This document shows, piece after piece, positions 5,147 through 16,701 of a stretch of DNA of 16,701 nt. The position numbers and the translations under genes are program-made. Location: positions 1 through 16,701 of the forward strand of contig JAJNBK010000011.1 in NCBI GenBank assembly GCA_021155845.1, read 5' to 3'. The notes beneath the pieces were generated by a model, which was given only the letters and a program-made list of their open reading frames with translations, was not told the origin of the DNA and made no database searches. Source of the stretch: Nitrososphaeraceae archaeon (GTDB lineage Archaea > Thermoproteota > Nitrososphaeria > Nitrososphaerales > Nitrososphaeraceae). Every line of letters starts with the position of its first letter. Position 1 is the first letter of the stretch.

Positions 5147-6232
5147 CTACTGACTTAATTCATCCAATTCTAAAATTGTAGCCAATAACAGCTCTGTTAT
5201 TGAAGACAAATATTTTAAATCAAGTGTATCTGGTGTATCAGATGTGCTGTGGTAATTGGGATTTTGTTCTACTCCTCCGTCATGTACTCCTATAACTATA
5301 TAACCAAAAGCTTCAAAAGGACGGTAATCACTATTACCATCAATAATAGTCAGTGTAGTATTTAGTCTTGTGTATTCTAAGGCAATCTGTTTCATGAATA
5401 TTCCAACAATATATGAAGATATGTCATTTGTTGTGACCTTATTCCCCCAATCGTACTGTAAGTTGACTTTATTTGATCCTTGGGGAGGATAGCCAATCAT
5501 ATCTGCGTTGATTAGTAGATCTATCTTTCTGTTGTTATCAAGTAGGTATTTTACATAGTTTTTTGATCCCCATTGACCTTGTTCTTCGCCTGAAAATAAC
5601 ACAAATTGAATGTTATTTTTCAAATCAATTTGAGAAAGGATCCGTGCTAGTTCAAGGATCGCAGATACACCACTGGCATTATCATCAGCTCCTGGAGCTC
5701 GGCCATTGGTATTATTAATGTCTTGCATTCTACTATCATAGTGTGCTGAAATAATGATAAGGTTGTCTGATTCTAATCCCTTCTTATCACAAACGATATT
5801 TTTCAAATGATAATCTGTTCCTTGGTCCGTTTGAGTAAAATTGTGAAAGTAAACCCTAGCTTTGCATATACCTTGGAGCTCATCTTTGAGCCAATACGCA
5901 GCGTCTTCAATATATTCTGATTTGGTATGTCTAGTGTGAAAAGATGATAGAACATCTACCCATTTTCTAAGTTTAGTATAGTTAACTTGGTCTATGACTG
6001 AACTTATGGATAGTTCATCGGCTTCTTCTGATTCTTCTATTTTCTGCAGTGACGAATCTTTCACACAATTAATAGCATAAAAAAGACATAAAGTATAGTT
6101 ATTATCTGCATCTACATTTTTATTCGCAGCAGCAATTCCAATTGTAGTATTTGACAAGCTAGCAAAGATTGTGACTAATATTAATAATATCAATAACCAG
6201 GATAGTTTAATAGATACTTTTTTCACCGACAT
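5147..6232 (-). CDS. Secreted or membrane-anchored M28-family zinc aminopeptidase
   Basis: A 361-residue peptidase of family M28, which uses two zinc ions to remove N-terminal residues from peptides. An N-terminal hydrophobic segment (about residues 10-36, after KK) is a signal peptide or anchor, placing the enzyme outside the membrane. The metal ligands and catalytic residues are all visible: His164 in IISAHYDSR, bridging Asp183 in GADDNASG, the Glu216-Glu217 pair in FSGEEQGQWGS (catalytic base and ligand), Asp244 in NADMIGYP and His328 in NYHSTSDTPD. Residues 75-150 form the usual N-terminal part before the first zinc ligand. The gene is complete, about 220 bp from the oxidoreductase downstream, and probably has its own promoter. 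With the amino-acid permease further upstream it suggests use of external peptides, which is an inference. Confidence 0.92.
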   Translation of the reverse strand: MSVKKVSIKLSWLLILLILVTIFASLSNTTIGIAAANKNVDADNNYTLCLFYAINCVKDSSLQKIEESEEADELSISSVIDQVNYTKLRKWVDVLSSFHTRHTKSEYIEDAAYWLKDELQGICKARVYFHNFTQTDQGTDYHLKNIVCDKKGLESDNLIIISAHYDSRMQDINNTNGRAPGADDNASGVSAILELARILSQIDLKNNIQFVLFSGEEQGQWGSKNYVKYLLDNNRKIDLLINADMIGYPPQGSNKVNLQYDWGNKVTTNDISSYIVGIFMKQIALEYTRLNTTLTIIDGNSDYRPFEAFGYIVIGVHDGGVEQNPNYHSTSDTPDTLDLKYLSSITELLLATILELDELSQ

Positions 6233-6255
6233 GAATATATATTTTAGGTATTATA

Positions 6256-6408
6256 CTAATTCAATAACATAAACAGATCCCTATAATCCATCTGGAAAAT
6301 TATGAATGAAGGAACAGATTCAGAGGTCTGTCTCTGTCTTTCAAATATTCCACTCTTTTCTAACTCTTTAGGCGTGATTGACAATGTCCATGTGCCAAAG
6401 GCTTTCAT
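6256..6408 (-). CDS. Candidate 50-residue hypothetical protein
   Basis: An ATG at 6408 opens 50 codons ending in TAG at 6256-6258. The product begins MKAFGTWTLSITPKELEKSG, continues IFERQRQTSESVPSFIIFQM and ends with DYRDLFMLLN. The composition is protein-like, with alternating hydrophobic and charged residues and few of the Asn/Ile/Lys runs that fill random frames here. There is no signal peptide or metal motif. It lies upstream of the M28 peptidase on the same strand, only 23 bp from its start codon, so the two could be cotranscribed. It may also be a fragment of a larger lost gene. I do not recognise it. Confidence 0.4.
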   Translation of the reverse strand: MKAFGTWTLSITPKELEKSGIFERQRQTSESVPSFIIFQMDYRDLFMLLN

Positions 6409-6743
6409 GTTTGTCTAAATTGTTTATTTCTTAGGAGTAGTTGTAAAGTCTTATTGTATGACTAAATGACAATGATAATCATAGTTTAATTATTACCATT
6501 ATTACCATTATCAAATACTACTTCTATATAGCAACAGCAAAAAACTGCATTAGAACAAACAACAAGATACGACAACTTGTTGACTTGGAAATTATATATC
6601 TTGCACTTTGTAATAATGCCTCCTCTACTACATGCAAAGTAGCATATTGAAATCCTGTACATTTTAAAATGATAATAGTTTAAACTCCATTTTTGTATTA
6701 AAGATTATACAGAAGTCAATTTGCAAAAGATATTGGTTGCCTT

Positions 6744-6887
6744 ATGCTTGAATTCTTATCATATTATCCAATTAGCAAGTTTCCTCTTCCTCCTAGAGAA
6801 GTCCCCTATATAGATGACAATTCCAGTTATATAGCAGCTATGATAGGACTAGGAGAAACTATCCATGCAATAAGGGAGTCTCGCTAG
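6744..6887 (+). CDS. Candidate 47-residue hypothetical protein or gene remnant
   Basis: An ATG at 6744 opens 47 codons to a TAG at 6885-6887, with sequence such as MLEFLSYYPISKFPLPPREV and AAMIGLGETIHAIRESR. The same phase is open upstream to a TAA at 6699-6701 (RSQFAKDIGCL), so the start may have been lost. Past the end, another phase continues with protein-like sequence (SLDIATEISKLAVSGLIL) before a TAG, so a frameshift near 6880 is possible. It faces the 3' end of the permease gene tail to tail. No family is recognised. I favour a remnant of a longer gene over an intact small protein. Confidence 0.35.
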   Translation: MLEFLSYYPISKFPLPPREVPYIDDNSSYIAAMIGLGETIHAIRESR

Positions 6888-6982
6888 ACATTGCTACTGA
6901 AATATCAAAATTAGCTGTTAGTGGATTGATTTTATAGTTTGTGATCTATCAATTCTTCCTCAAGACAATAAAATTATCTTTA

Positions 6983-9409
6983 TTATCTATGAATAGCCCT
7001 CAGTAGAGCATATTTTATCCGACTTACACCTGGAATGATAAAACTTCTTGCAATAATAGCTGGGCAGTTAAGCCCATCTAACATGGAGACAAAATGTTGA
7101 TTATCAAATACATTAAATTTACCAACTCTTTTACCCATTATTACTAGATCTGGCTGAGAAGCATTAACTGAAGACAAGATCAACTTTGCAAAGTTTTCAC
7201 TATTGTTTTGTGTCTTTTCTGATACAAAAACTTCGTGGAACTCTACACCAATCTGCTCCAAATACTGCACATGCTGCTCTTTTTCTAGTTCTTTTTTATT
7301 CTTTATATCTTCGTTATCAATTTTGCTGTAGCCTATATGTTCTCGTTCTTCTTTCTTCTTTATAGATAATACAATTACCTTGAACCTTCCAGAACGCTCT
7401 AGCCAACTAGCTGTCCTCAATACCATATCTGAATGATCTCCTCCATCGTACAGAACAACCATGTTCTTCCTATTTCTTTCAGATATAGGATTTGCTTCTT
7501 CTCTTTTTTCTTCTTTTGCAATAAATTCCTCAAGCATGAGTTCTTGATCACTGCCTCCACCTGTCAAAACAGCAAGTATATTGCATGTTAAAAGCGTCTG
7601 TAATGTCTTGTTTCTCCTTAACGTTTCATAATCTGTAATCAAAAGATCGATGCGCTGCTCCTCAATTGTTGATAATATAGCCTCGGTTGCATCATGGGAA
7701 ATCCTTACAAAGTAATGATTTAGTATGTTTTCTTTATCTATTATTTTTTCTAATGGTTCAAAAGCTCTTGCTGCAGACTCTGTAAATGCGATTCCTGCAG
7801 AAAGTGGTGTTTGTTGTGGCACTGTAATAACTCTTAATATGTTAATTTCTCCATCATTTTCCTTTGCAACCCTAATCGCATATTTTATTAATCTATCAGG
7901 ATTCTCTGGAGTATAAGGAATTAAAATCCTGAAATCTTTTCTTGTTAGATCACCTTCACTGGTGATAATTGGCGCATAATGATCAATTTCTTTTCTGAAA
8001 GAATAAATTCTATATACAGCAAAACCTATTGCAATCCATAATACGCTAATAACCCAACTGAAGGGTTCAGTAATTAGAAGATAAATGGCAAGTCCTAATT
8101 TCACAATGACGCCGATGATAGGTACAAAGGGAAAGAATGGAGTCTTAAATCCATAATGAAGCTTATCTCCATACATATTTCTTATAGTAATGACGGAAAT
8201 GTTTACTTGTGTAAATAAGAGCAAGAATATGACACCAGCGGCAAGTGCAATTTGGTCTAGTGGTAATGCATAGGCCACAACAGCCATTAATATACCCGAT
8301 ATTATTGTAGCAACGTATGGAGTTTTGAATTTATGATGAATTTCGCTTAATTGATATGGTAGATTATAATGTCTACCCATAGCAAATGCGACTCTGGCTG
8401 ATGAGTAAGTAGTAGCATTCAATGCAGCTAAACTTGAAACTATACCACCAGCAAGAATGATAAAAAAGCCATAGGGTAAAAATAACTCAGCAGCTTTACT
8501 TATCCCTAAATCACCATTTTGACCTATGAATTTCCATGCAGGAATATCACCAATATTTTGAGGAAAAATTGCACCGATGGAGACAAATGCTACAAGACAA
8601 TACAATAAAACAACAAGAGTTAACGAAATGAAGATTGCTCTTGGTATATTCTTCTTTGGATTCTTTATTTCCTCGCCGGTCTGAACTATTATTTCATAAC
8701 CTTCAAAGGCAATGAATGTTAGTCCCATAGCAGCAACAATTCCCCCTATTCCTATAGGAGCAAAGTTACTGAGGATATTGGAATTCCATTCAGGATTATT
8801 ACTTATAGTCATAAAGCCAGCGCCTATTAATGCAAAAATTGTTCCAAGCTGAATGACAGTAACTATGATCCCAAGTTTACTAGTCTGAGATGCTCCTTTG
8901 ACATTAACATAAGTAAAAGCAGCTATTGATGCAACTGCTATCAGTTTATCTAAATGAATAATTCCTAGTATAGGTTGGTCTCCAATAATACCTAACATCT
9001 CTAATAGACTAAACTGAAAAGAACCGTATCCTACAGCATACAAACTACCAGCAACTATATGAGCAAACCAAGCCATCCAACCGCTTATAAAAGCATTAGG
9101 TCGTGGCAGTCCTTCTCTAACCCAAAGATAGCCGCCACCAGCCTCTGGCATAGCAGAACCCAATTCCGCATAACCCATAGCCGTGAAAAGTGTGATTATT
9201 CCATTAATAATAAAGGCAATAATAACAGCACTTCCTGCAAGACCTATTGCTGGGCCGACAAGAACAAATATAGCCCCACCAATCATGCCGGCTATACCAA
9301 TCATAACAACATCTAGAAGACCCAAGGTACGGACTAGGTGACGCTGGCGAAGATTTGCAGGCAATGGTACTTCTGATATATCATTATCATTACTGCGATA
9401 TTCTGCCAA
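6983..9409 (-). CDS. APC-family amino-acid permease fused to two universal-stress-protein domains
   Basis: An 808-residue fusion. Residues 1 to about 475 form an APC-superfamily cation-coupled transporter with about 12 membrane helices. The first helix carries the family's glycine-rich substrate motif (GIAGMIGGAIFVLVGP), and AFEGYEIIVQTGEEIKNPKK matches the conserved helix-6 and following loop. After a basic linker (YSFRKEIDH) come two cytoplasmic Usp-like domains: about 490-620 (FRILIPYTPENPDRLIKYA, IDLLITDYETLRR) and about 650-790 (NMVVLYDGGDHSDMVLRTA, DLVIMGKRVGKF). Usp domains often bind ATP or AMP and may gate the transporter; the classic nucleotide signature is not clear in either. The start is TTG 9409: an in-frame TGA lies four codons upstream and the first ATG would remove the N-terminus up to helix 1. 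AGGTGA lies 12 nt before it. The substrate is unknown, probably an amino acid or polyamine. Confidence 0.9.
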   Translation of the reverse strand: MAEYRSNDNDISEVPLPANLRQRHLVRTLGLLDVVMIGIAGMIGGAIFVLVGPAIGLAGSAVIIAFIINGIITLFTAMGYAELGSAMPEAGGGYLWVREGLPRPNAFISGWMAWFAHIVAGSLYAVGYGSFQFSLLEMLGIIGDQPILGIIHLDKLIAVASIAAFTYVNVKGASQTSKLGIIVTVIQLGTIFALIGAGFMTISNNPEWNSNILSNFAPIGIGGIVAAMGLTFIAFEGYEIIVQTGEEIKNPKKNIPRAIFISLTLVVLLYCLVAFVSIGAIFPQNIGDIPAWKFIGQNGDLGISKAAELFLPYGFFIILAGGIVSSLAALNATTYSSARVAFAMGRHYNLPYQLSEIHHKFKTPYVATIISGILMAVVAYALPLDQIALAAGVIFLLLFTQVNISVITIRNMYGDKLHYGFKTPFFPFVPIIGVIVKLGLAIYLLITEPFSWVISVLWIAIGFAVYRIYSFRKEIDHYAPIITSEGDLTRKDFRILIPYTPENPDRLIKYAIRVAKENDGEINILRVITVPQQTPLSAGIAFTESAARAFEPLEKIIDKENILNHYFVRISHDATEAILSTIEEQRIDLLITDYETLRRNKTLQTLLTCNILAVLTGGGSDQELMLEEFIAKEEKREEANPISERNRKNMVVLYDGGDHSDMVLRTASWLERSGRFKVIVLSIKKKEEREHIGYSKIDNEDIKNKKELEKEQHVQYLEQIGVEFHEVFVSEKTQNNSENFAKLILSSVNASQPDLVIMGKRVGKFNVFDNQHFVSMLDGLNCPAIIARSFIIPGVSRIKYALLRAIHR

Positions 9410-9421
9410 ATATTGTACTAG

Positions 9422-9427
9422 TCACCT
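9422..9427 (-). promoter_or_regulatory. Possible ribosome binding site for the permease TTG start
   Basis: AGGTGA on the minus strand, 12 nt before the TTG at 9409. The spacing is longer than usual, so its role is uncertain, but it supports a leadered transcript and the TTG start. Confidence 0.35.
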
Positions 9428-9447
9428 TATTATAGTCTAATTTAAGG

Positions 9448-9463
9448 TTTGAGTTAACTCAAA
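9448..9463. promoter_or_regulatory. 16-bp perfect palindrome upstream of the permease
   Basis: TTTGAGTTAACTCAAA is a perfect palindrome centred about 46 bp upstream of the permease start codon. TATA-like sequences (CTATAATAAGG and TTAAATTA on the minus strand) lie between it and the gene, so it sits where an archaeal regulator would act just upstream of the promoter. Its GTTAAC core resembles the half-sites of the TTAAC-N3-GTTAA family near 11.3-14.0 kb, but without the 3-bp spacer. Confidence 0.55.
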
Positions 9464-9470
9464 AATAAAA

Positions 9471-9490
9471 TATGTATATATATATATACT
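9471..9490. repeat. TA dinucleotide run
   Basis: A short run of alternating T and A (about eight TA units, one interrupted by G) next to the permease palindrome. It may ease DNA melting or simply be slippage-prone sequence. Confidence 0.6.
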
Positions 9491-9605
9491 ACCAGGATAA
9501 AGCCATCATTTCGTTGCATAGGTTATTAATTATAAAAATATTATACAACTGTGTAAATTCTGTGGATTAAGTGGAATATAGATATATTTTATTGCAACTC
9601 AGGTT

Positions 9606-9776
9606 CTATTCATAACCTTGTTCATTTTTTCTATGTCTGTTGTCTTTTTTCTTAACATGCTAAAGACAGTTTAATCCTATTGCAATCAATGAAGCAACAA
9701 TCATATCTGTAAAAAGATTTGGAAAAATAGATGAGTAGTATAATGTGGAGTTAATCTTGCCCTCTGCATTATTATA
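9606..9776 (-). pseudogene. Remnant of a membrane-anchored protein gene with one in-frame TAG
   Basis: One minus-strand phase reads from 9776 to a TAG at 9606-9608 with a single internal TAG at 9660-9662. The sequence is protein-like: NAEGKINSTLYYSSIFPN, a hydrophobic helix (MIVASLIAIGLNCL), the stop, then a basic tail HVKKKDNRHRKNEQGYE. This layout (outer segment, one membrane helix, positively charged tail) suits the C-terminus of an exported, anchored protein. No start codon exists at the 5' end, which is closed by a TAA at 9777-9779, so most of the gene is lost. Family unknown. Confidence 0.45.
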
Positions 9777-9957
9777 TTATAGAAAATTGTGATGTTATCT
9801 GAACACCTTCTCGATAGAAATTTTGGTTAATTAAGGTAACTATGTTAAGCAAGACATTGCTTTAACTATTAATTTATTGTTTATATGAATATCATTACAA
9901 GTGCTCAATATAATACTTAAAAGGGTAAAATCACTTGCAATTAGAGATTATATTGGA

Positions 9958-9967
9958 CTATAAAGTA
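9958..9967 (+). promoter_or_regulatory. TATA-like box for the winged-helix stub
   Basis: ACTATAAAGT lies about 25-30 bp before the ATG at 9991, the spacing expected for a leaderless archaeal transcript. The promoter appears intact although the gene behind it is not. Confidence 0.5.
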
Positions 9968-9990
9968 AAAGTCTAAAGTCATCATCTATA

Positions 9991-10200
9991 ATGTCTGGTT
10001 CCAATAGTTCATATCGAGATAGGATATACATTGTCAAAGATATAATCCTAAAACTTTTGGAATATAGTGAACTAAACCAGACAGCATTAGTAAGCTTTTG
10101 TGGCTTGAATCTAAAAAAACACAAACCTAGATGTTCCCTAGAAGGAAGACTATTGATGATAGTGATGATGATGACGCCACTGCTGAATAACAATAAATGA
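9991..10200 (+). pseudogene. Truncated winged-helix regulator (HTH_45-like)
   Basis: The first 46 residues match the start of a thaumarchaeal winged-helix DNA-binding protein of the HTH_45 type: SYRDRIYIVKDIILKLLEYS followed by the helix-turn-helix ELNQTALVSFCGLNLKKHKP. Intact members continue for about 50 more residues with the wing and a C-terminal helix. Here the sequence changes after KHKP into a Met/Leu/Asn-rich tail with no family resemblance and stops at 69 residues. In another phase the same DNA reads RRKTIDDSDDDDATAE and then stops at 10188-10190, which looks like an acidic protein tail. This fits deletion of the middle of the gene with loss of frame. It ends 8 bp from the tail of the convergent membrane-protein gene. 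Confidence 0.65.
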
Positions 10201-10208
10201 ATAATATA

Positions 10209-10640
10209 CTAACTAATAGAGTCGTTCTTAAAATCTTGTTGCATATTATCTAAACCATCACCATATTGTGATTCAATCATTTTATCTAGTTTCTGTTTTT
10301 CCTCAATATACTCCTTATATCTATTATTCCAAGAACTTAGAGAACGATATTGTCTTATTCCTGTTATAAGCCAAATTGAAGAAATAATGATAACTGCACC
10401 CAACAAAACACTAAGGACCAGTCCAAATTCATTTTCTATTTCAAGGATAGCAAAGAATGAAGGATGTAACATAAGATATATTGAAAGTGCAATTGCAAGA
10501 GGTGAGAGAACCAAAGCAGAAATAGAAACACCAAGAAGAGTTCTTCTAATTTGATGTATTTGTTCTATGAAATTATCAAGTAAACTCAGAATGTCATGAC
10601 GAGACATATTTAATTTCTCTTCGTTATTATCAGAGCTCAT
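10209..10640 (-). CDS. Conserved two-helix membrane protein
   Basis: A 143-residue protein of unknown function. A hydrophilic N-terminus (about 1-33) is followed by two membrane helices, about 36-58 (LGVSISALVLSPLAIALSIY) and 73-95 (GLVLSVLLGAVIIISSIWLI), and a charged C-terminal region from 96 that is probably a short coiled coil (WNNRYKEYIEEKQKLDKMI). Both termini are likely on the same, cytoplasmic side. From memory, proteins of this layout are common in ammonia-oxidising archaea, but I know no function. It starts at ATG 10640 and shares direction with the cupredoxin gene upstream, though the 109-bp gap suggests a separate promoter. Confidence 0.75.
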   Translation of the reverse strand: MSSDNNEEKLNMSRHDILSLLDNFIEQIHQIRRTLLGVSISALVLSPLAIALSIYLMLHPSFFAILEIENEFGLVLSVLLGAVIIISSIWLITGIRQYRSLSSWNNRYKEYIEEKQKLDKMIESQYGDGLDNMQQDFKNDSIS

Positions 10641-10749
10641 ATGATTAATAAAACACCATATTATCTATATTATTTTTAAATTAGAGTATTAATATTAGAA
10701 ATCTTCTTTTTGAAATCATATACATGTACATATATGTATGCATATCTGA

Positions 10750-11334
10750 TCAGCCTGTACTGCCTGCTACTACTACAATATTACCTTTCATCTCAGGATG
10801 TATCGTACAATAATACTGAAATGTTCCTTCCTTATCTGCAATAAATGTAACCGTTTGACTTTGAAAATATCCTAAATCTTTTGTATGCACATTGAATTGA
10901 TCTATGTTAAAGTTATGCTTTGAATGTGTTTGGTAGTCTTCATTTATCATGTGGATAGATTCCACACTGCCTTTATTGAAAGTATAAGTTGGACTAGTGC
11001 TGTAAGCACTTCCACCACCACCACTACTTCCACGAAGACCTTTTACTGCACCACTAGATTGACTTACAAAAATATAACCTGTCTGGGGTGAATGTGATGC
11101 CTTGATAAAGATATTTCGAGGCGGCGAGAGAACAGGTGATTTACCATTTACTGGAATCATTGAATTTATTGCATAATAAGATATTATTGTGATAGCAGTT
11201 GCTACAGCGAGAATTACTATGATAGCACCTCTAGAAAACTTAAACTTATTCTTATTTTTACCCTTAAGATTCTGTTTTTTCTGTTTTCTTGTTGTTGTCG
11301 TATAATAATTTGAATAAATGGTATATTTAGGCAA
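10750..11334 (-). CDS. Membrane-anchored blue-copper (plastocyanin-like) protein
   Basis: A 194-residue cupredoxin. A basic N-terminus (1-36) is followed by one membrane helix (about 37-57) and an outside domain. The type-1 copper ligands can be assigned to His140 (KHNFNID), then Cys176, His179 and Met182 in YYCTIHPEM, the C-x2-H-x2-M arrangement of plastocyanin-like proteins. A Gly/Ser stretch (102-110) links anchor and domain. Ammonia-oxidising archaea use many such proteins as electron carriers in place of c-type cytochromes, and that is the likely role. The start is TTG 11334: a TAA lies two codons upstream in frame and the next ATG (residue 59) would remove the anchor. A TTAAC-N3-GTTAA palindrome begins 3 bp upstream of the start, and two TATA-like boxes lie further up. 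Confidence 0.9.
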   Translation of the reverse strand: MPKYTIYSNYYTTTTRKQKKQNLKGKNKNKFKFSRGAIIVILAVATAITIISYYAINSMIPVNGKSPVLSPPRNIFIKASHSPQTGYIFVSQSSGAVKGLRGSSGGGGSAYSTSPTYTFNKGSVESIHMINEDYQTHSKHNFNIDQFNVHTKDLGYFQSQTVTFIADKEGTFQYYCTIHPEMKGNIVVVAGSTG

Positions 11335-11337
11335 TGC

Positions 11338-11350
11338 TTAACATAGTTAA
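11338..11350. promoter_or_regulatory. TTAAC-N3-GTTAA palindrome, copy 1 (cupredoxin)
   Basis: TTAACATAGTTAA, within the longer shared form GCTTAACATAGTTAATC (11336-11352). It lies 3 bp upstream of the cupredoxin TTG start, apparently downstream of the transcription start expected from the TATA boxes near 11400. A protein bound here would block transcription or hide the start region. Confidence 0.65.
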
Positions 11351-11395
11351 TCTACTACTACATCCATTGTAGTAATAGAAAAAATGTCACAAATA

Positions 11396-11414
11396 TCTTT
11401 TATACCTTTTATAA
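11396..11414 (-). promoter_or_regulatory. Two TATA-like boxes for the cupredoxin gene
   Basis: On the minus strand TTATAAAAGG (11414-11405) is followed at once by TATAAAAGA (11404-11396). Both fit the archaeal TATA consensus. Starts 25-30 bp downstream would leave a leader of about 35-50 nt containing palindrome copy 1. Confidence 0.55.
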
Positions 11415-11543
11415 TGGGGTGTGTATAATAGGAGAAAATAAATTAATTAATTATTCTTTTAAGTAAAGATGAGTATATTCCATGAATTGAATTGCTATCA
11501 ATTTTACTTTTGTTTGTTTGTTTGACCAATAGAACTTGATGAA

Positions 11544-11600
11544 GGGTAGAGAGAGAGTGGATGTAGAGTGAGATTAGGGTTGGATGTACACTCTCTACCC
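11544..11600. repeat. Inverted repeat with 10-bp arms in the divergent intergenic region
   Basis: GGGTAGAGAG (11544-11553) pairs with CTCTCTACCC (11591-11600) around a 37-nt loop that holds two copies of TGGATGTA (11558-11565 and 11581-11588). It lies between the divergent cupredoxin and zinc-ribbon genes, so it is not a terminator of either. It may be a regulator site or a decayed mobile-element end. Confidence 0.6.
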
Positions 11601-11654
11601 ATATCCAAGAGGTCTAGTTAATCATAGTTAGATTCGAACATTATAATGTCTTGC

Positions 11655-11688
11655 TTAACATAGTTAATTCAATGCTTAACCTAGTTAA
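11655..11688. promoter_or_regulatory. Two tandem TTAAC-N3-GTTAA palindromes, 21 bp apart (copies 2 and 3)
   Basis: TTAACATAGTTAA (11655-11667) and TTAACCTAGTTAA (11676-11688), each preceded by GC. The 21-bp period is two turns of the helix, so two dimers would lie on one face of the DNA. The pair ends 7 bp before the TATA box of the zinc-ribbon gene, a position suiting an activator or a cooperative repressor. A related half-site, CTAGTTAATC, lies at 11614-11623. Confidence 0.7.
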
Positions 11689-11694
11689 TCCATC

Positions 11695-11703
11695 TTTATA
11701 AAT
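11695..11703 (+). promoter_or_regulatory. TATA box of the Cys-rich zinc-ribbon gene
   Basis: TTTATAAAT is centred about 23 bp before the ATG at 11722, consistent with a leaderless or nearly leaderless transcript. Confidence 0.6.
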
Positions 11704-11721
11704 CAAAATAGTACATCAGCG

Positions 11722-12108
11722 ATGATGTTGCTTCAGAAATCCAATCTTGATGATAGAATGACTGATGATTGTCATATACATTGTGATGGCAGTACTACTG
11801 CTACTGCAACAACAAATAGAACAACAACTACTGATACTGCATACCACCACCACCACACTAACACAAACAAATTGAGCAATGAAAAGAAAAGAATCATTAC
11901 AAAACAAAGACATTTCTTACTATGTGAATCATGTTTTTGGTGTGCTTCTTCTATCTACTTGGTTAGTATGGATTGGATATGTCCTGTCTGCAGCAATAAT
12001 AATAATAACAAGGTAGAATCAATACCCATTCAGAATAATGAAATATACAAATTTGATTACAATCAAAGACATGGAGTTATCCTTGAATTCTCAGAATCGG
12101 TAGTGTAA
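11722..12108 (+). CDS. Cys-rich zinc-ribbon protein with Thr/His-rich N-terminus
   Basis: A 128-residue protein. Residues 1-60 are low in complexity: a Thr/Ala-rich run, a His4 run (42-45) and an Asn/Lys stretch. The folded part starts near 60: KQRHFLLCESCFWCAS, then MDWICPVC, giving Cys68, Cys71, Cys74, Cys87 and Cys90, a zinc ribbon (C-x2-C-x2-C ... C-x2-C). After an Asn run (92-96) the C-terminus IYKFDYNQRHGVILEFS looks like a short beta hairpin. I recall similar small CESCFWCAS-type proteins in thaumarchaea; function unknown, perhaps DNA or RNA binding. The His run and Cys cluster could also bind metals. ATGs at 11722 and 11725 are both possible. Two palindromes and a TATA box precede it, and the next gene follows after 8 bp, probably as an operon. 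Confidence 0.75.
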   Translation: MMLLQKSNLDDRMTDDCHIHCDGSTTATATTNRTTTTDTAYHHHHTNTNKLSNEKKRIITKQRHFLLCESCFWCASSIYLVSMDWICPVCSNNNNNKVESIPIQNNEIYKFDYNQRHGVILEFSESVV

Positions 12109-12116
12109 TATAGTTA

Positions 12117-12368
12117 ATGAATATCATATATACAGAAACACCTTTGTCAATTATGGCAAAGACATGTGGCTTTAGCGAGAGAAACAGAAGGGTAACATAT
12201 GCATTTTTTGATTCTTATCATAGTCTTTGTCTTGATAAGAAAGATATTATCTATTCTGAAATAGAAGCATGTCAAAGACTTTTGAAATACACAAATGATA
12301 AAGCAGATAAGAAAGTAATACAAAAAGAGATTACAGGATTGAAGATGGCATTAGATCTTATGCATTAG
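12117..12368 (+). CDS. Conserved small helical protein downstream of the zinc ribbon
   Basis: An 83-residue protein, mostly helical and charged: GFSERNRRVTYAFFDSYHSL, then IIYSEIEACQRLLKYTNDKA and EITGLKMALDLMH. There is no membrane segment and no complete metal site (Cys16, Cys38 and Cys52 are scattered). The gene begins 8 bp after the zinc-ribbon stop, in the same direction, so the two are probably cotranscribed and may work together. ATG 12117 gives the longest form; ATG 12153 (MAKTCGF) is an alternative, since the first 12 residues look unlike the rest. Function unknown. Confidence 0.65.
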   Translation: MNIIYTETPLSIMAKTCGFSERNRRVTYAFFDSYHSLCLDKKDIIYSEIEACQRLLKYTNDKADKKVIQKEITGLKMALDLMH

Positions 12369-12471
12369 TAATTTTATTAGTTATAATAAAGGAATTCCAA
12401 TGATTTACAATATTAATAACTATAGTAATATTTAGAACATCGTTATTTTAAGATAGGGTCGAAAGATATAG

Positions 12472-12540
12472 ATGACTAGGATAAAAAAGAAAAGAATTTT
12501 AGTTGTCGAACAAGGGTCAGATGCCTTAATGGTACATTAA
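12472..12540 (+). pseudogene. N-terminal stub of a response-regulator receiver domain
   Basis: ATG 12472 opens 22 codons: MTRIKKKRILVVEQGSDALM then VH and TAA. The pattern basic-RILVVE-x-x-x-D-A matches strand 1 and the acidic loop that start CheY-like receiver domains, except that the usual acidic residue after Glu13 is Gln. The stop comes before strand 2, and the following DNA does not continue the domain in any phase I checked. Short, so chance resemblance is possible. Confidence 0.4.
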
Positions 12541-12598
12541 TTCTAGCATGGGAAAGGTAGATAGATTTGTATATTTCGTAGCCTTTAATAAAAGTCTA

Positions 12599-12611
12599 CT
12601 AACCTAGTTAA
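12599..12611. promoter_or_regulatory. TTAAC-N3-GTTAA palindrome, copy 4 (one mismatch)
   Basis: CTAACCTAGTTAA, one base off the perfect form. The shared stretch CTAGTTAATCATAG also occurs near 11614, so this may be a duplicated site. No intact gene follows closely, consistent with a decayed gene having stood here. Confidence 0.45.
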
Positions 12612-13344
12612 TCATAGGTATATAGTTCAAATATAATTCAACAACTTGATGACAAGTAATAGCAGAATTACAGAAGGATAAAATGCAACATTAAAAACAA
12701 TTAGAACAATTTTAAGGGAACAGATGCAGAGAATGGAAACTTGATGAACACAGGGAATTTTTCGCCTTAAGCGTATAATTCTATAATCATTACAGCATTA
12801 AATAGATGGCATTATTTCTTTTTTACCAAAAGTGTATCTATAGGAATATGATGAAAACGAAGTCTTATTAAGTATATCTCTTAAACATTTAGAAAAAATT
12901 TCTATTATAAGATTTTGCTTATGTCGTGATATATTATTCTATTTATTCTCAATTCCACTCAATTATCATACCGAACACCTCACCAACCCTAATTATAACT
13001 GATGAACTATAGTATAACAGAGCAGTTCGTTATCTTAACTTATGAAAAATGAGATAGTTGCTTTTGTGAGCAGGAAATCATTAAGTTCAATACCTTGGTA
13101 AGCAAGAGTGCACATAATAGAAAAAATATCACATACAATAATCCGAACAAATAATAAATATTAGTTAATCCAAAATTTAAATTTCATTTAGTTAGCGTTC
13201 ATGCTAAAGGATATGTTTGGACTAAAACATTATGGTTGATAGATAGGTATTATTTATTATACACACTATCTGATCTATAATATAGCATATATGAAATCAT
13301 CCGTCAGTTCCATTACCATTGGCCTGTTTTTGAGGATTGATGTT

Positions 13345-13515
13345 TCAGAATCGATTGTCCTTCTTTTTCCTTTCGCCTCTTCCCGTGTGAGCTATTTTCG
13401 AATGCACCTTAAACCTCTGCTTATCTTCAAATCTCATATCACAATGCTTGCACTTGACAGGTCTATTATCATCGTTTTCCTTTTCCTTTTTATTTCTTTT
13501 AAAAAATAGCTCCAT
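13345..13515 (-). CDS. 56-residue C2H2 zinc-finger protein
   Basis: ATG 13515 to TGA 13345-13347. The product begins MELFFKRNKKEKENDDNRPV, and residues 21-43 form one classic C2H2 finger: Cys22-x2-Cys25-x12-His38-x4-His43 (KCKHCDMRFEDKQRFKVHSK and then IAH), with Phe29 and Phe35 near the usual core positions. A basic tail (GRGERKKKDNRF) follows. A single finger with basic flanks suits a small nucleic-acid-binding protein, and short C2H2 proteins of this kind occur in thaumarchaea. The opposite strand has a longer 72-codon frame over the same DNA, which is only a shadow with no sensible composition. A palindrome copy lies 48 bp upstream of the start, so the gene may belong to the same regulon as the zinc ribbon and the cupredoxin. 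Confidence 0.8.
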   Translation of the reverse strand: MELFFKRNKKEKENDDNRPVKCKHCDMRFEDKQRFKVHSKIAHTGRGERKKKDNRF

Positions 13516-13563
13516 GATAATCTTTCGAGATATTCAGATGCAATATGAGTACTTAAACTATGC

Positions 13564-13576
13564 TTAACATGGTTAA
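13564..13576. promoter_or_regulatory. TTAAC-N3-GTTAA palindrome, copy 5 (C2H2 gene)
   Basis: TTAACATGGTTAA within GCTTAACATGGTTAATT, 48 bp upstream of the ATG of the C2H2 gene. A weak TATA-like GTTTAAGTA on the minus strand lies between it and the gene. Confidence 0.6.
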
Positions 13577-13715
13577 TTTAAACACAAGAATTAACAACCG
13601 TTGGATTGTGACAAAGAACGAAAGACATGATTGCATAGTTTTAAAAAACCTTTGTGAAATTTGAGCTTCAAATACCAAATAGTTTATGTCTATAGATATT
13701 TTAGCAGAGACGCTT

Positions 13716-13907
13716 TCATACTAATTTTTCTAATTTTGCGGTATTACGGGGTTTTGTTCTCAGAATAGTCCCACAACAAGGACATCTTTTATTCTTCCAT
13801 TTAATAAACACATCACAGATCTGGCAGCGTTTATTACCCGCAGAATAATAACTGCCTCTTTTCTCTTTTTTTGCCCTATATTTCTCACAGATGTTTTTGC
13901 ATAGCAT
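13716..13907 (-). CDS. Small zinc-ribbon protein of thaumarchaeal type
   Basis: A 63-residue protein with a C-terminal zinc ribbon: Cys28-x2-Cys31 (KRCQICDVFIKW) and Cys42-x2-Cys45 (RCPCCGTILRTKPRN), with Cys44 as a spare. The N-terminus (NICEKYRAKKEKRGSYYSAG) is basic and probably helical. From memory, proteins with this exact layout, ending in CPCCG-x-x-LRT-x-PRN, are frequent and present in several copies in Nitrososphaeria; no function is known to me, but nucleic-acid binding is likely. The length looks complete, with the start at ATG 13907. The gene is divergent from the winged-helix regulator, with a palindrome copy in the shared upstream region. Confidence 0.8.
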   Translation of the reverse strand: MLCKNICEKYRAKKEKRGSYYSAGNKRCQICDVFIKWKNKRCPCCGTILRTKPRNTAKLEKLV

Positions 13908-14008
13908 ATTATTCTTCCTAACTTAAAGAGTATTTGTAATCATTAGCCTTTCTCTTATCGTCTTCATGATAATTAATTGTGATAGCACCCTTGCAATATA
14001 AGCTCTGA

Positions 14009-14021
14009 TTAACTAAGTTAA
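14009..14021. promoter_or_regulatory. TTAAC-N3-GTTAA palindrome, copy 6 (between divergent genes)
   Basis: TTAACTAAGTTAA within GATTAACTAAGTTAATCC. It lies 102 bp from the zinc-ribbon start (13907) and 86 bp from the regulator start (14107), so it could control either or both. A further half-site (GATTAATTAACC) follows at 14026-14037. If the regulator binds this family of sites, this copy would give autoregulation. Confidence 0.55.
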
Positions 14022-14106
14022 TCCAGATTAATTAACCAAGCTTCTCAAAAATACGTAGTCGCGCATTGGGATTAATCAATAGTATGATTTGGAGTGGATT
14101 AGTTGA

Positions 14107-14652
14107 TTGTTGTGCAAGATAAACGGGTTGGAAGGAAATATTGACAAGGTGTTACGCTTTATTCAAGATAAGCCAGGATGTCATCTACGACAGATCAAAA
14201 AGGAGGTACATATATCGATGGGAACAGCTCAATACCAATTAGCTCGACTGGAAAAAATAGGAAAGATAACTTCTACCAAAAAGGGTTTATATAAATTTTA
14301 TTTTCCATCTGGAGTTTTTCAGGATAATGAAAAGGATATCCTTCAAGTTCTGAGTCAGGAAACTGCAAGAGAAATACTAATGTTCATTATTGAACGAAAA
14401 AATCCTACACAATTAGATATAGTCGGTAAAATTGGAATATCAGCTGCATCTGCAAACTGGCATGTTAAACGCTTAATTGCTTTTAAGATAATAGATGAGG
14501 ATAGAGAAGGAAAGTACAAACGATACCAACTACATGATTTTGATGATTCTAAATACATAGTAGCATTGTTGAAGAATTATTATCCTGGTATTTGGGATAA
14601 ATGGTGTAATAGACTAGCTGAAATGTTTCTGTCATTATCTATGGGAGATTGA
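14107..14652 (+). CDS. Transcriptional regulator with two winged-helix domains (COG3398-like)
   Basis: A 181-residue DNA-binding protein with two winged helix-turn-helix domains. Domain 1 spans about 12-67, with recognition region HLRQIKKEVHISMGTAQYQL and wing KITSTKKGLYKFYF. Domain 2 spans about 75-142, with PTQLDIVGKIGISAASANWH and wing EDREGKYKRYQL. A C-terminal helix rich in Leu and Trp (YIVALLKNYYPGIWDKWCNR) probably supports dimer formation. The layout matches the archaeal two-HTH regulators of COG3398. No ATG is available before Met38, and an in-frame TGA lies at 14104-14106, so the start is one of the TTG codons at 14107, 14110 or 14128. Its stop overlaps the start of a small membrane protein, a pairing suggesting that the membrane protein senses or restrains it. 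A palindrome copy lies 86 bp upstream. Confidence 0.85.
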   Translation: MLCKINGLEGNIDKVLRFIQDKPGCHLRQIKKEVHISMGTAQYQLARLEKIGKITSTKKGLYKFYFPSGVFQDNEKDILQVLSQETAREILMFIIERKNPTQLDIVGKIGISAASANWHVKRLIAFKIIDEDREGKYKRYQLHDFDDSKYIVALLKNYYPGIWDKWCNRLAEMFLSLSMGD

Positions 14653-14933
14653 CAATAGAAATAGTTCCTTTTGAATCATTTTTTCTTGAAGTTGAACTAA
14701 TTGACACAGTAGAAGGTATGATATATCTAAGCAGTACGGTACTCTCGCTTTTATTGATGGCACTATCAATTTCTGCTTATAGAAATACAGGTCTAAAAAA
14801 AATGTCATACGCCGCAGCTGCATTTGCTCTATTTGCTGCTTATTTATCTTCTGAATATTTGGAAGCTGTCTATGAATTTTTACAAAGAGCATATAGTGAT
14901 GCAGTATTGCCCTCTATGGCATTGGTGTCCTAA
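14649..14933 (+). CDS. Small membrane protein paired with the regulator, apparently frameshifted near its end
   Basis: TTG 14649 overlaps the regulator's TGA (TTGA), which implies coupled translation. The 94-residue product has an N-terminal amphipathic part, a membrane helix at about 23-44 (MIYLSSTVLSLLLMALSISA) and another at about 53-75 (YAAAAFALFAAYLSSEYL). It ends abruptly with AVLPSMALVS. One base back in phase, from 14915, the DNA reads YGIGVLILFFLVIVKKNN and stops at 14969-14971: a third membrane helix with a basic end. One lost base in CCCTC at 14910-14914 would join them into a 3-helix protein of about 107 residues (14649-14971). Small three-helix proteins are common partners of archaeal HTH genes. 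Whether the shift is real or a sequencing slip in the CCC run cannot be told. Confidence 0.7.
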   Translation: MTIEIVPFESFFLEVELIDTVEGMIYLSSTVLSLLLMALSISAYRNTGLKKMSYAAAAFALFAAYLSSEYLEAVYEFLQRAYSDAVLPSMALVS

Positions 14934-15142
14934 TCTTATTCTTCTTAGTAATAGTTAAGAAGAATAATTAAAATAACTGACCATCTATTTGATATATCGA
15001 TCCTGCATGACTCTAAACTTAGAGGAATAGACATAAAAAGTAAAAAGGTCAACTCTGGTATCTATAATGACTTATTTGTTGAATATTATTTAGTTTGATT
15101 AATCAGTCCCATCAACTTATTTTTAGATAAGGATTTTGTAGA

Positions 15143-15227
15143 CTAATTAATAATAAATGAGGTACAGATATCTAAGTATATTAACATAGACTAATAAAGA
15201 ATGTCTCAATCAGTTAGACATTTGTAC
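15143..15227. repeat. Left arm of an 85-nt inverted repeat
   Basis: Read on the minus strand, this stretch aligns without gaps to 16004-16088, with 75 of 85 positions identical by my count and a 30-nt identical core (left 15161-15190, right 16041-16070). The right arm is the upstream region of the metallophosphoesterase gene, so this is an inverted copy of that region. Weaker similarity continues inward for some 20-30 nt. Confidence 0.9.
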
Positions 15228-15241
15228 GAGAAGACCTTATA

Positions 15242-15452
15242 TTAAGGTGCAGTCGTCGCCAACATTGGAATGAAATGTCCCATTGTTTGATTAATGCGAT
15301 CTTCGATTTGAAGGGGTACGAAAACGGGCTTAGCCTTTCTTTGCATCCGCCTGTTGCTCTTGAAGTACCGTTGGTGCGAGTACTAACCCAGCCATCACAA
15401 ATGCAGTTAAAGATACTACAGCAATCCTATGGTGATTTATTGTTTACTCCAT
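15242..15452 (-). pseudogene. Small secreted-protein gene, broken by a nonsense codon and a frameshift
   Basis: Starting at ATG 15452 the frame reads M-E, then TAA, then TINHHRIAVVSLTAFVMAGL, VLAPTVLQEQQADAKKG and TAA. That is a clear signal peptide ending near a QADA-type cleavage site. Skipping one T at about 15330-15332 (minus strand GGC-T-AAG) continues in a new phase with KPVFVPLQIEDRINQTMGHF and IPMLATTAP to a TAA at 15242-15244. With AAA in place of the first TAA and the extra base removed, the gene would encode 69 residues. Similar tiny exported proteins are common in thaumarchaea, but I do not know this one. The opposite-strand 63-codon frame is a shadow. Confidence 0.7.
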
Positions 15453-15644
15453 TGGTAGCACAATAATTCAAATTAATTATAAGAATGAAACTCAACCATG
15501 TTAACCAAGGATGTTGTATCGCTATATCTTGATGGCAGTATCTAACAACCTGTCCAGCTTTTCTCTGAGAATTCACTTTTTTTGCAGTACTTTGTCATTG
15601 GCTTTGCAAACCCCTTTTAATCATCTGTTCGTGCCATCAATAGA

Positions 15645-15834
15645 CTATATTATCTCAAACCAACAATCAACAGAATCTCCACCATAAGCATAGTCACCCA
15701 GTGCAAGTACCAAGTCTGGACTTTTATCTAATATGTTATTTACAGTTTCTATTGTGTGAGATGTACATCCCCTCTCCTACGGCTGCAAAATTAAAATCAG
15801 GTATAAGGGATGATGATTCTGATGCAAATGCAAA
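15645..15834 (-). pseudogene. Inverted, decayed copy of the metallophosphoesterase 5' region
   Basis: Read leftwards from 15834, the phases give FAFASESSSLIPDFNFAAVG, then, after a one-base loss at about 15769-15772, CTSHTIETVNNILDKSPDLV, LALGDYAYGG and DCWFEII before a TAG at 15645-15647. This aligns with IPDFNFAAAGDW, CTSHTIETVNNILDKSPELV and GLGDFSYD of the intact gene at 16114. A 54-nt block (15715-15768) is identical to 16278-16331 in reverse complement, while the flanks are much more diverged. The copy has the second metal-binding GD but has lost frame, and nothing recognisable of the GNHD motif follows. Similarity may reach further at either end in eroded form. Confidence 0.85.
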
Positions 15835-16003
15835 TTTTTGGTGCTGATGTTTTTTTATTTTTGTTCTTCTATCGTAATTGTTATGGAAATGTCTAATAAA
15901 ATTACAATGGATATTAATAAATAAACTAATACTGATAATAATCGCATCGACAAGTGTAATATATATTGGGAGAATTATTAGTAGTTCAATATAATTCGTT
16001 CTG

Positions 16004-16088
16004 GTACAAATGTCTAACTGATAGAAAATTTTTCATTTAGTCTATGTTAATATACTTAGATATCTGTACCTCATTACTTATTAATTAG
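16004..16088. repeat. Right arm of the 85-nt inverted repeat, upstream of the metallophosphoesterase gene
   Basis: Partner of 15143-15227 in inverse orientation. The identical 30-nt core includes a TATA-like TTAATATAC (16048-16056), about 60 bp before the ATG at 16114, so the repeat carries the likely promoter of that gene. Confidence 0.9.
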
Positions 16089-16113
16089 AGAATCAACAAA
16101 TCATGCTCTCGCA

Positions 16114-16701
16114 ATGCAAACAGAACTACTTTTGGTATTACTATTTACAGTCATAATTGCAAGTGGAATTACTTTAGCACCCGTCTTAGGTGCTTCTGAC
16201 CAAACCATTACAACCTCTCTATCACCACCAACACAAACGATACCTGATTTTAATTTTGCAGCTGCAGGCGATTGGGAATGTACATCTCACACAATAGAAA
16301 CTGTAAATAACATATTAGATAAAAGTCCAGAATTAGTAATAGGATTGGGTGATTTTTCATACGATCCTACCACGGATTGTTGGTTTAAGATAGTAGATCC
16401 TATAGATGAAATAATGAAAATTAGTATAGGCAATCATGATGAGGACTCTTCTGCTGAACTAAACTCATTGATGAGTCATTTTAATCTTACAAAGCCATAC
16501 TATTCCTTTGACTATCAAAACGTTCACTTCACTATAATTTATAGTAGTCCAGGAGAGACGTCTCATCATACGATAAAAGCCACCCTTACAGAAGGTTCTG
16601 ATCAATATGAATTTATTAAGAATGATCTTGCAAAAGCATCCACAGACCCAAATATAGATTGGATAGTAGCAGTCTATCATAAATTTGCTTATACTTCACC
16701 A
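16114..16701 (+). CDS. Secreted metallophosphoesterase, 3' end beyond the window
   Basis: The first 196 residues of a calcineurin-like metallophosphoesterase, which hydrolyses phosphate esters with a two-metal centre. Residues 4-27 are a signal peptide (LLLVLLFTVIIASGITLAPV, then LGAS), so the enzyme is exported. Visible metal motifs are AAGDW (Asp53), GLGDFSYD (Asp80), IGNHDE (Asn107, His108) and, near the cut, VYHK (His189); the last GHxH part would lie outside the window. The spacing fits purple-acid-phosphatase-like or 3',5'-cyclic-AMP-phosphodiesterase-like members. ATG 16114 is chosen because it begins just before the signal peptide; an ATG at 16103 is in another phase. An inverted, broken copy lies 280-470 bp upstream, and the promoter region is one arm of an inverted repeat. 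Confidence 0.88.
   Translation, partial: MQTELLLVLLFTVIIASGITLAPVLGASDQTITTSLSPPTQTIPDFNFAAAGDWECTSHTIETVNNILDKSPELVIGLGDFSYDPTTDCWFKIVDPIDEIMKISIGNHDEDSSAELNSLMSHFNLTKPYYSFDYQNVHFTIIYSSPGETSHHTIKATLTEGSDQYEFIKNDLAKASTDPNIDWIVAVYHKFAYTSP

What the first reader, a model, noticed from the sequence alone, without database searches (positions are those of the whole stretch)
11336..14021. A recurring palindrome, TTAAC-N3-GTTAA, marks a cluster of small metal-protein and regulator genes
Five perfect copies (11338, 11655, 11676, 13564, 14009) and one with a single mismatch (12599) lie within 2.7 kb; I saw none elsewhere in the window. Ten fixed bases, two of them G/C, should be rare by chance even in DNA this rich in A+T. 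Most share the longer form GCTTAACATAGTTAATC, so they are more than random dyads. They sit upstream of a cupredoxin, a Cys-rich zinc ribbon, a C2H2 protein and a two-HTH regulator. A common, undescribed regulon, perhaps responding to a metal or redox state, is the simplest reading.
Basis: partly seen in the sequence, partly recalled or inferred. Interest (0 to 1): 0.75.

Follow-up and report, generated by a model that had tools for sequence, protein, structure and literature searches.

The report
Shared promoter switch of ammonia-oxidizing archaea
A short mirror-image DNA sequence repeated in front of small metal-protein genes turns out to be a probable docking site placed at a fixed distance from the start signal of transcription, found in many ammonia-oxidizing archaea, and probably read by a small DNA-binding protein often encoded next to it.

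Summary
In detail: five perfect TTAAC-N3-GTTAA sites lie in 2.7 kb of a Nitrososphaeraceae (ammonia-oxidizing archaeon) contig; no shuffle matched the count. The regulon reading is right and larger than proposed. In relatives the palindrome has a TATA-like box at one fixed place (TAAATA exactly at +15 from its centre at 24 of 83 sites, at most 4 at any other offset). The strict composite occurs 110 times in 64 of 400 class genomes, against 11 for the reversed control. Targets include an anchored cupredoxin, a zinc ribbon, C2H2 proteins, a DUF1059 protein and a small hydrophobic protein. A better candidate is a 110-residue winged-helix (HTH_45) protein beside the cluster: it lies within 1 kb of a composite site in 34 of those 64 genomes, and sites are missing around one variant of its recognition helix (4 loci). 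The window's own copy has lost about 133 bases. Placement upstream of the TATA box suggests activation. Signal and binding are untested. My open-access searches found no description.

The parts
11338..11350 (-). Perfect palindrome, probable promoter site of the cupredoxin; TATA-like TAAATA at 11324-11329 on the minus strand
11655..11667 (+). Perfect palindrome, upstream tandem partner of 11676 (21 bp apart)
11676..11688 (+). Perfect palindrome with TATA-like TATAAA at 11697-11702; centre 40 bp from the ATG at 11722
12599..12611 (+). One-mismatch palindrome; A+T-rich hexamers at +15 on both sides but no open reading frame of 50 aa or more that starts between it and 13290 on the plus strand (orphan or decayed promoter)
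13564..13576 (-). Perfect palindrome, probable promoter site of the C2H2 gene; TAAGTA at 13550-13555
14009..14021 (-). Perfect palindrome, probable promoter site of the zinc-ribbon gene; TATATT at 13995-14000. A+T-rich (AATTAA) on the other side too, so a role for 14107 is not excluded
9836..9848 (+). One-mismatch palindrome 149 bp upstream of the winged-helix gene; no TATA-like hexamer at +15
9991..10200 (+). Winged-helix gene (relatives are HTH_45), probable cognate regulator, truncated: 46 conserved residues, then about 133 bp missing relative to L088 and a change of frame
10209..10640 (-). Small protein with two hydrophobic stretches (read by eye), convergent partner of the winged-helix gene
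10750..11334 (-). N-terminally anchored cupredoxin (PF13473); the listed TTG start lies upstream of the TATA-like box, so the true start is uncertain
11722..12108 (+). Cys-rich small protein (CxxCxxC...CPxC), conserved in 4 of 20 fetched loci, in some with a site upstream
12117..12368 (+). Conserved 83-aa protein; in G038 and G060 its homologs have their own site upstream
13345..13515 (-). Single C2H2 zinc-finger-like protein (Pfam scores below cut-off)
13716..13907 (-). Zinc-ribbon-like protein (C-x4-C ... CPCC, no Pfam hit), conserved in 4 of 20 fetched loci, 3 of them with a site upstream

Best explanation
TTAAC-N3-GTTAA is the operator half of a composite promoter element of ammonia-oxidizing archaea: palindrome, then 8 bases (the BRE region), then a TATA-like hexamer at +15 to +20 from the palindrome centre, then, at many targets, a start codon about 40-50 bases from the centre. 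A homodimer of a small winged-helix protein (HTH_45 type, FCGLN-KH recognition helix, often encoded next to the cluster) binds the palindrome and, from this fixed place just upstream of BRE/TATA, recruits TFB or TBP and so activates the genes of a small metal-protein regulon: anchored cupredoxin, zinc ribbon, C2H2 proteins, DUF1059 protein, the convergent hydrophobic small protein. Shown: conservation, fixed spacing, linkage in about half of the genomes tested. Inferred: binding, direction of control, signal. In the window the linked regulator copy is truncated, so here the sites are read by another copy or the regulon is losing control.
For: Site excess in loci fetched by protein search: 5 exact sites against 0.10 expected and 26 with up to one mismatch against 3.20 in 16 FCGLN loci, 0 of 100 shuffles reaching the latter. 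TAAATA at exactly +15 in 24 of 83 distinct sites, at most 4 at any other offset. 19 promoters chosen by me average 0.95 A+T at +15 to +20; best of 2000 random-shift sets 0.825. Strict composite: 110 matches in 64 of 400 class genomes against 11 for the reversed pattern (my sums). The winged-helix gene lies within 1 kb of a composite site in 34 of those 64 genomes and within 2 kb in 38 (my arithmetic), in genomes of 1-5 Mb. Sites in excess near FCGLN (16 loci), YCRLN (6) and YCGLN (3) types but not near the CCGLNF type: 0 exact and 1 with up to one mismatch against 0.78 expected in 4 loci. AlphaFold model: winged helix, mean pLDDT 81.5. Activators in archaea typically bind upstream of the BRE (PMC5512572, passages; PMC5937170, passages).
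Against: In 26 of the 64 genomes with the strict composite the winged-helix gene is not within 2 kb of it; 2 of 64 lack a hit, and a group of 13 (such as G209, G210, G171) has good hits (best E 1.6e-49 or lower) far from, or on another contig than, the site. The gene is common anyway (60 of 70 family genomes), so mere presence says little. The window's own copy is broken while five sites remain perfect. The winged-helix gene's own promoter does not obey the +15 rule: 0 of 20 copies with an upstream site by the strict pattern; in marine-type genomes that site is shared with a divergent C2H2 gene. Only 10 of 27 winged-helix loci and 13 of 22 cupredoxin orthologs have a site with up to one mismatch within 250 bp upstream. 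The bare motif and the one-mismatch long form do not exceed the reversed control. No binding or expression data.
Confidence: 0.66

Rival explanations
1. Same element and same regulator, but the winged-helix protein represses: bound beside the BRE it blocks TFB, and a metal or oxidant releases it.
For: Many small winged-helix regulators are repressors (recalled); TrmB represses from a palindrome at the BRE/TATA box (PMC4158304, passages). The site lies close enough to the BRE for steric hindrance.
Against: Rigid spacing with the site wholly upstream of the BRE region fits direct contact with the basal machinery. In the OxsR and TGM cases upstream sites activate and downstream sites repress (PMC9426492; PMC4158304; passages).
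Confidence: 0.17
2. The reader is another regulator, unlinked in many genomes (for instance a different winged-helix paralog), and the neighbourhood of the HTH_45 gene is only one target region.
For: In 26 of 64 genomes with the composite the gene is not within 2 kb of it; the HTH_45 gene's own promoter lacks the +15 geometry; the window's linked copy is broken with sites intact.
Against: Linkage within 1 kb in 34 of 64 genomes; recognition-helix variant without sites.
Confidence: 0.1
3. The reader is the 14107 two-HTH protein.
For: A perfect site lies 92 bp upstream of it, and the side facing it is A+T-rich too; part of it resembles ArsR/SmtB metalloregulators, below cut-off.
Against: 28 of 29 loci with its homologs have no perfect site, and the one site is about 9 kb away. 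The zinc-ribbon gene on the other side has the site in G036, G043 and G010 as well.
Confidence: 0.03
4. The palindrome is bound by a general factor (nucleoid protein or a particular TFB/TBP paralog), and the cluster is just a set of genes using one promoter class.
For: Fixed spacing to the TATA-like box would also suit an extended core-promoter element.
Against: It is rare (110 strict copies in 400 genomes), recurs at a few gene families and lies within 1 kb of one winged-helix gene in 34 of 64 genomes.
Confidence: 0.03
5. The excess is chance or a dispersed repeat in A+T-rich DNA.
For: The bare motif is below its reversed control in 11 relatives; the one-mismatch long form shows no overall excess.
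Against: Sites recur at orthologous genes in genomes of 43-56% GC, with independent flanks and the same TATA spacing; other palindromes of the same shape are absent or single.
Confidence: 0.01

Closest known systems
TFB-RF1 of Pyrococcus furiosus (PMC5937170, passages read)
   Same: A regulator that binds a semi-palindrome (TCTG-N5-CAGA) next to a weak BRE and activates by recruiting TFB; its gene sits in an operon with a hypothetical gene whose promoter it activates.
   Different: Different palindrome, host lineage and target genes; homology to the HTH_45 protein here was not tested.
OxsR of Haloferax volcanii (PMC9426492, passages read)
   Same: Single winged-helix archaeal regulator with a conserved cysteine; motif upstream of BRE/TATA goes with activation.
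   Different: TrmB family and CG-rich motif; the protein here hits HTH_45, not TrmB, in Pfam, and its invariant cysteine lies next to the start of the predicted recognition helix.
EarA of Methanococcus maripaludis (PMC5512572, passages read)
   Same: Activator with sites immediately upstream of the BRE.
   Different: Four 6-bp sites at one operon; euryarchaeal; archaellum genes.
Copper-limitation motifs of Nitrososphaera viennensis (PMC7785015, passages read)
   Same: The only conserved promoter motifs of soil ammonia-oxidizing archaea that my searches turned up; also near copper proteins.
   Different: Consensus TTCSGSMTTTGWACYANT and RATTTAAABATAGATTTAAATAATAAS; neither is TTAAC-N3-GTTAA.
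Sso10a / HTH_45 DNA-binding proteins of crenarchaea
   Same: Nearest annotated family by sequence (Pfam HTH_45) and among the nearest folds (Sso10a-2, TMq 0.56).
   Different: Scores 26.4 bits against a cut-off of 60 for NCBIfam Sso10a; a specific operator is not what chromatin proteins are known for (recalled).

Membership tests
PF14947 HTH_45 winged helix | Score above Pfam's gathering cut-off | tested here: met
   Relatives L088 and L236 score 29.5 bits against 25.5. The truncated window copy was not scanned.
Sso10a chromatin protein (NF053610) | Score above NCBIfam cut-off | tested here: not met
   26.4 bits against 60
TrmB family (as OxsR) | Pfam PF01978 match | tested here: not met
   Not among the Pfam hits up to E 0.1 for the L088 protein
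Archaeal activator-type promoter (site upstream of BRE/TATA) | Operator at fixed spacing upstream of a TATA-like box | tested here: met
Archaeal activator-type promoter (site upstream of BRE/TATA) | Protein raises transcription through TBP or TFB | not testable with these tools
   needs in vitro transcription
N. viennensis copper-limitation motif regulons | Published motif consensus | tested here: not met
   Consensus sequences compared by eye and differ; expression of these genes under copper limitation not seen (supplements not available)
Type-1 copper cupredoxin (10750-11334) | Cupredoxin domain and His-Cys-His-Met ligand set (ligand roles recalled) | tested here: met
   PF13473 32.3 bits against 27; H119, C155, H158 and M161 are among the invariant columns of six orthologs, the window's included

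The most novel reading that the evidence does not exclude
An ancient regulon predating the split of the soil and marine ammonia-oxidizing archaea, run by a paired system new to archaea: a winged-helix activator and a small hydrophobic (probably membrane) partner that senses copper or redox state at the membrane and holds or frees the activator. The pair is itself repeated as paralogs with their own targets.
Probability: 0.28. Interest if true: 0.85.

Novelty: new member of a known kind. Interest (0 to 1): 0.7.

Why it matters
Ammonia-oxidizing archaea drive much of soil and ocean nitrification (recalled), and my searches turned up no regulon of theirs with a known operator and reader. This gives a precise, testable operator, promoter geometry, target list and candidate factor that can be assayed in vitro without genetics. 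The targets (a copper protein of the electron-carrier fold and small zinc-binding-type proteins) touch the copper-based metabolism of these organisms.

Tried and rejected
Rejected: 14107 as reader. Mobile-element or plasmid origin: no near match in plasmids for 6001-16701 or in phages for 9801-12400, and the cluster recurs in many genomes. Known RNA or tRNA gene: none found. Chance. A replacement palindrome in the CCGLNF genomes: upstream regions read, none convincing. A relic of a known cluster gene in the ORF-free stretch 12369-13300: only weak tblastn hits (best E 0.008 in the part printed, cut at 1500 characters). Solved-structure relatives by sequence: none at E 0.01. Autoregulation with the same geometry: not borne out.

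Results against, and limits: the bare motif is below control in 11 of 11 relatives. The one-mismatch long form is 83 against 96 controls over 70 genomes (my sums). The looser composite is 81 against 56 over 70 genomes (my sums); in the 18 genomes listed from G035 to G051 with G010, picked after seeing the table, it is 20 against 1. The 20 genomes were not a blind choice: I took mostly genomes with several sites, and for 7 of them had already seen the hydrophobic-protein gene behind a site. All 20 were linked; the 44 left out, tested afterwards, were linked within 1 kb in 14 and within 2 kb in 18; 4 of these 14 gave sequences to the A2 profile. Many sites precede no clear gene (such as L198, L199, L210, L213) or an unrelated one (a SufC-like gene, named by eye, in L194 and L196), so not every match is a promoter. 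One search's counts are biased upward because L219-L248 were fetched for holding the composite. One search's loci came by protein search, but some (L160, L161, L163-L166) cover places first met by motif, and homologous promoters are not independent. One search used the winged-helix hits listed, nearly all small-protein hits (second pieces of split matches and some weak ones left out), and only part of the cupredoxin list. A5 holds 31 of 120 listed hits. L125 was left out of the five groups; it is FCGLN and has 2 exact sites. Of the 8 site-free cupredoxin loci, one (G015) has an FCGLN copy elsewhere in its genome.
Full report
The window. Proteins of the window match Nitrososphaeraceae, a family of soil ammonia-oxidizing archaea; GC is 32%. 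Handles G001 to G408 are unnamed. G035 can be named by matching records: its contig of 2,954,373 bases has the length of the longest contig of P0123, named by its source Candidatus Nitrososphaera evergladensis SR1.

The observation. One search confirms five perfect sites and the one-mismatch site, plus two more one-mismatch sites, with 0 of 200 shuffles as rich. Six control palindromes of the same shape are absent from the window.

Conservation. A family scan with the long form and one mismatch (70 genomes) showed no overall excess (83 against 96 controls, my sums), but in some genomes two sites lay within 400 bp. Twenty stretches chosen from it were fetched, and the window's own genes turned up in them: the cupredoxin in 7 of 20 loci (one, L089, only partly), the hydrophobic small protein in 6, the winged-helix gene in 6, the zinc ribbon in 4, the Cys-rich small protein in 4 and the 83-aa protein in 2. 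Each of these has a site upstream in at least one relative. The exact symmetric long form GMTTAACNNNGTTAAKC occurs 17 times in 70 family genomes against 2 for the reversed control. The bare 10-base form, by contrast, is below its control in all 11 relatives.

The candidate regulator. The plus-strand frame at 9991 matches winged-helix genes of relatives over 39-46 of its first 46 residues at 79-93%; relatives hit Pfam HTH_45. In the window the rest is missing. After KHKP the sequence jumps, in another frame, to the conserved C-terminus, about 133 bases shorter than L088. Around 27 winged-helix loci there are 20 exact sites against 0.15 expected by shuffling, but six of these loci (L099-L104) cover places first found by motif. 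Without those six and L121-L125, the 16 FCGLN-type loci fetched by protein have 5 exact against 0.10 and 26 with up to one mismatch against 3.20. The recognition-helix text tracks the sites: FCGLN (16 loci), YCRLN (6) and YCGLN (3) types have an excess, CCGLNF (4) has none, and 8 cupredoxin loci without such a gene beside them have none. A profile of the gene matches 122 places in 60 of 70 genomes; 94 of the 122 have the hydrophobic small protein within 1 kb, 63 in the same direction with the winged-helix gene first, 30 convergent, 1 in the other order.

The promoter geometry. Oriented to their genes, 19 promoters chosen by me have an A+T-rich hexamer at +15 to +20 from the palindrome centre (mean A+T 0.95; best of 2000 random-shift sets 0.825). 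In loci fetched by protein search, 24 of 83 distinct sites have TAAATA at exactly +15, and no other offset has more than 4. Of 13 further sites outside the cluster, 12 have, by eye, a hexamer of at least five A or T at +15 on one side or the other; with two sides to choose from this alone is weak. Some of these precede C2H2-protein genes (G040, G043, G051), others no clear gene or an unrelated one.

Depth. The strict composite TTAAC-N3-GTTAA-N8-TAAATA has 110 oriented matches in 64 of 400 genomes drawn from the class, against 11 for the reversed pattern (my sums). Many of these genomes are of 1-2 Mb, as marine Nitrosopumilaceae are (recalled). I first tested 20 of the 64 for the winged-helix gene, not blindly (see Tried and rejected). 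All 20 have it (E at most 1.1e-44), 446 to 910 bp from a composite site (my arithmetic). The other 44 were then tested: 42 have a hit, 14 within 1 kb of a composite site and 4 more within 2 kb. Together that is 34 of 64 within 1 kb and 38 of 64 within 2 kb, far above what 1 to 6 sites in 1-5 Mb would give at random. In 26 of 64 the two are apart. These include 13 genomes with strong hits whose composite site lies elsewhere, several of them with closely similar flanks (such as TTAACCAAGTTAATCTATCAATAAATA and its like in G171, G209, G210, G154 and G163); what these sites control was not examined.

Around the sites of the fetched class loci lie the hydrophobic small protein, the cupredoxin and the zinc ribbon, two kinds of C2H2 protein (below Pfam cut-offs), a DUF1059 protein (25.8 bits against a cut-off of 21.1) and an unnamed 148-aa protein. 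Exact sites lie 20-200 bp upstream in 21 of 37 copies of the hydrophobic small protein, 23 of 30 of one C2H2 kind, 7 of 8 of the other, 20 of 27 DUF1059, 17 of 27 zinc ribbons, 5 of 6 of the 148-aa protein, 10 of 16 cupredoxins and 20 of 35 winged-helix genes (biased upward by selection). At the C2H2, DUF1059 and 148-aa genes the centre lies 41-47 bases from the aligned start in most copies. The promoters of these genes and of the zinc ribbon that were printed (up to 13 per family) have an A+T-rich hexamer at +15; the stricter pattern missed forms such as TTATAA and TATTAC. The winged-helix gene's own promoter is the exception (0 of 20), and in many of the marine-type genomes it shares its palindrome with a divergent C2H2 gene.

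Mechanism. In archaea, sites upstream of the BRE usually serve activators that recruit TBP or TFB, and sites over or after the TATA box serve repressors (PMC5512572, PMC5937170, PMC4158304, PMC9426492; passages read). The rigid spacing here therefore favours activation by direct contact. The AlphaFold model of a relative (31-sequence alignment) is a winged helix with mean pLDDT 81.5. Its nearest folds are MarR-type, PadR-type and Sso10a proteins, some of them thiol switches (AbfR, OhrR, SarZ; roles recalled), but TM-scores of about 0.5-0.7 make this only a fold match. One cysteine just before the predicted recognition helix is invariant in the alignments, which allows a redox or metal switch but does not show one.

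What the window adds. Its linked regulator is truncated, its site at 9836 has a mismatch and no TATA-like box, 12599 has no reading frame of 50 aa behind it, and yet four target promoters keep perfect sites and TATA-like boxes. Either another copy of the regulator exists (some genomes have two close copies, such as G012 and G035), or the loss is recent, or the deletion is an assembly error. These cannot be told apart here.

Prior description. Ten searches of the open-access library returned no paper that I recognised from listings or passages as describing this element; one search listed 15 of 60 papers and 10 of 11. The literal string TTAACNNNGTTAA is in none. The published N. viennensis copper motifs are different (PMC7785015, passages). 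Passages of PMC6563490 and PMC7554672 do not mention the element. Subscription papers and supplements were not seen.

Noticed in passing
window 9991-10200: The winged-helix gene has lost about 133 bp, with the conserved C-terminus still readable in another frame.
   Followed up: partly
window 12369-13290: About 900 bp without an open reading frame of 50 aa, holding the one-mismatch site 12599; looks like decayed or non-coding DNA.
   Followed up: partly
window 2749-3804: An aldo/keto-reductase-like gene (named by eye) is split into two minus-strand frames (230 and 89 aa), so it is probably broken.
   Followed up: no
window 10750-11334: The only usual start codon before the cupredoxin's hydrophobic anchor (TTG 11334) lies upstream of the predicted TATA-like box, so the start of translation is unexplained.
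   Followed up: partly
L088 194-535 and relatives (P0126, P0144, P0150): The winged-helix protein ends in a short hydrophobic tail (such as LAMLILI), kept in many listed relatives; possible membrane contact or degradation signal.
   Followed up: no
Class loci L238, L243: One palindrome with TAAATA on both sides at +15: a probable bidirectional promoter.
   Followed up: partly
70 family genomes: The winged-helix gene and the hydrophobic small protein form a recurrent pair with several paralogs per genome, sometimes beside another cupredoxin (G035, G036, G051).
   Followed up: partly
G171, G209, G210, G154, G163: Closely similar composite sites away from the winged-helix gene; perhaps a further shared target in that group, not examined.
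   Followed up: no
window 6983-9409: Amino-acid permease fused to universal-stress-protein domains (808 aa).
   Followed up: no
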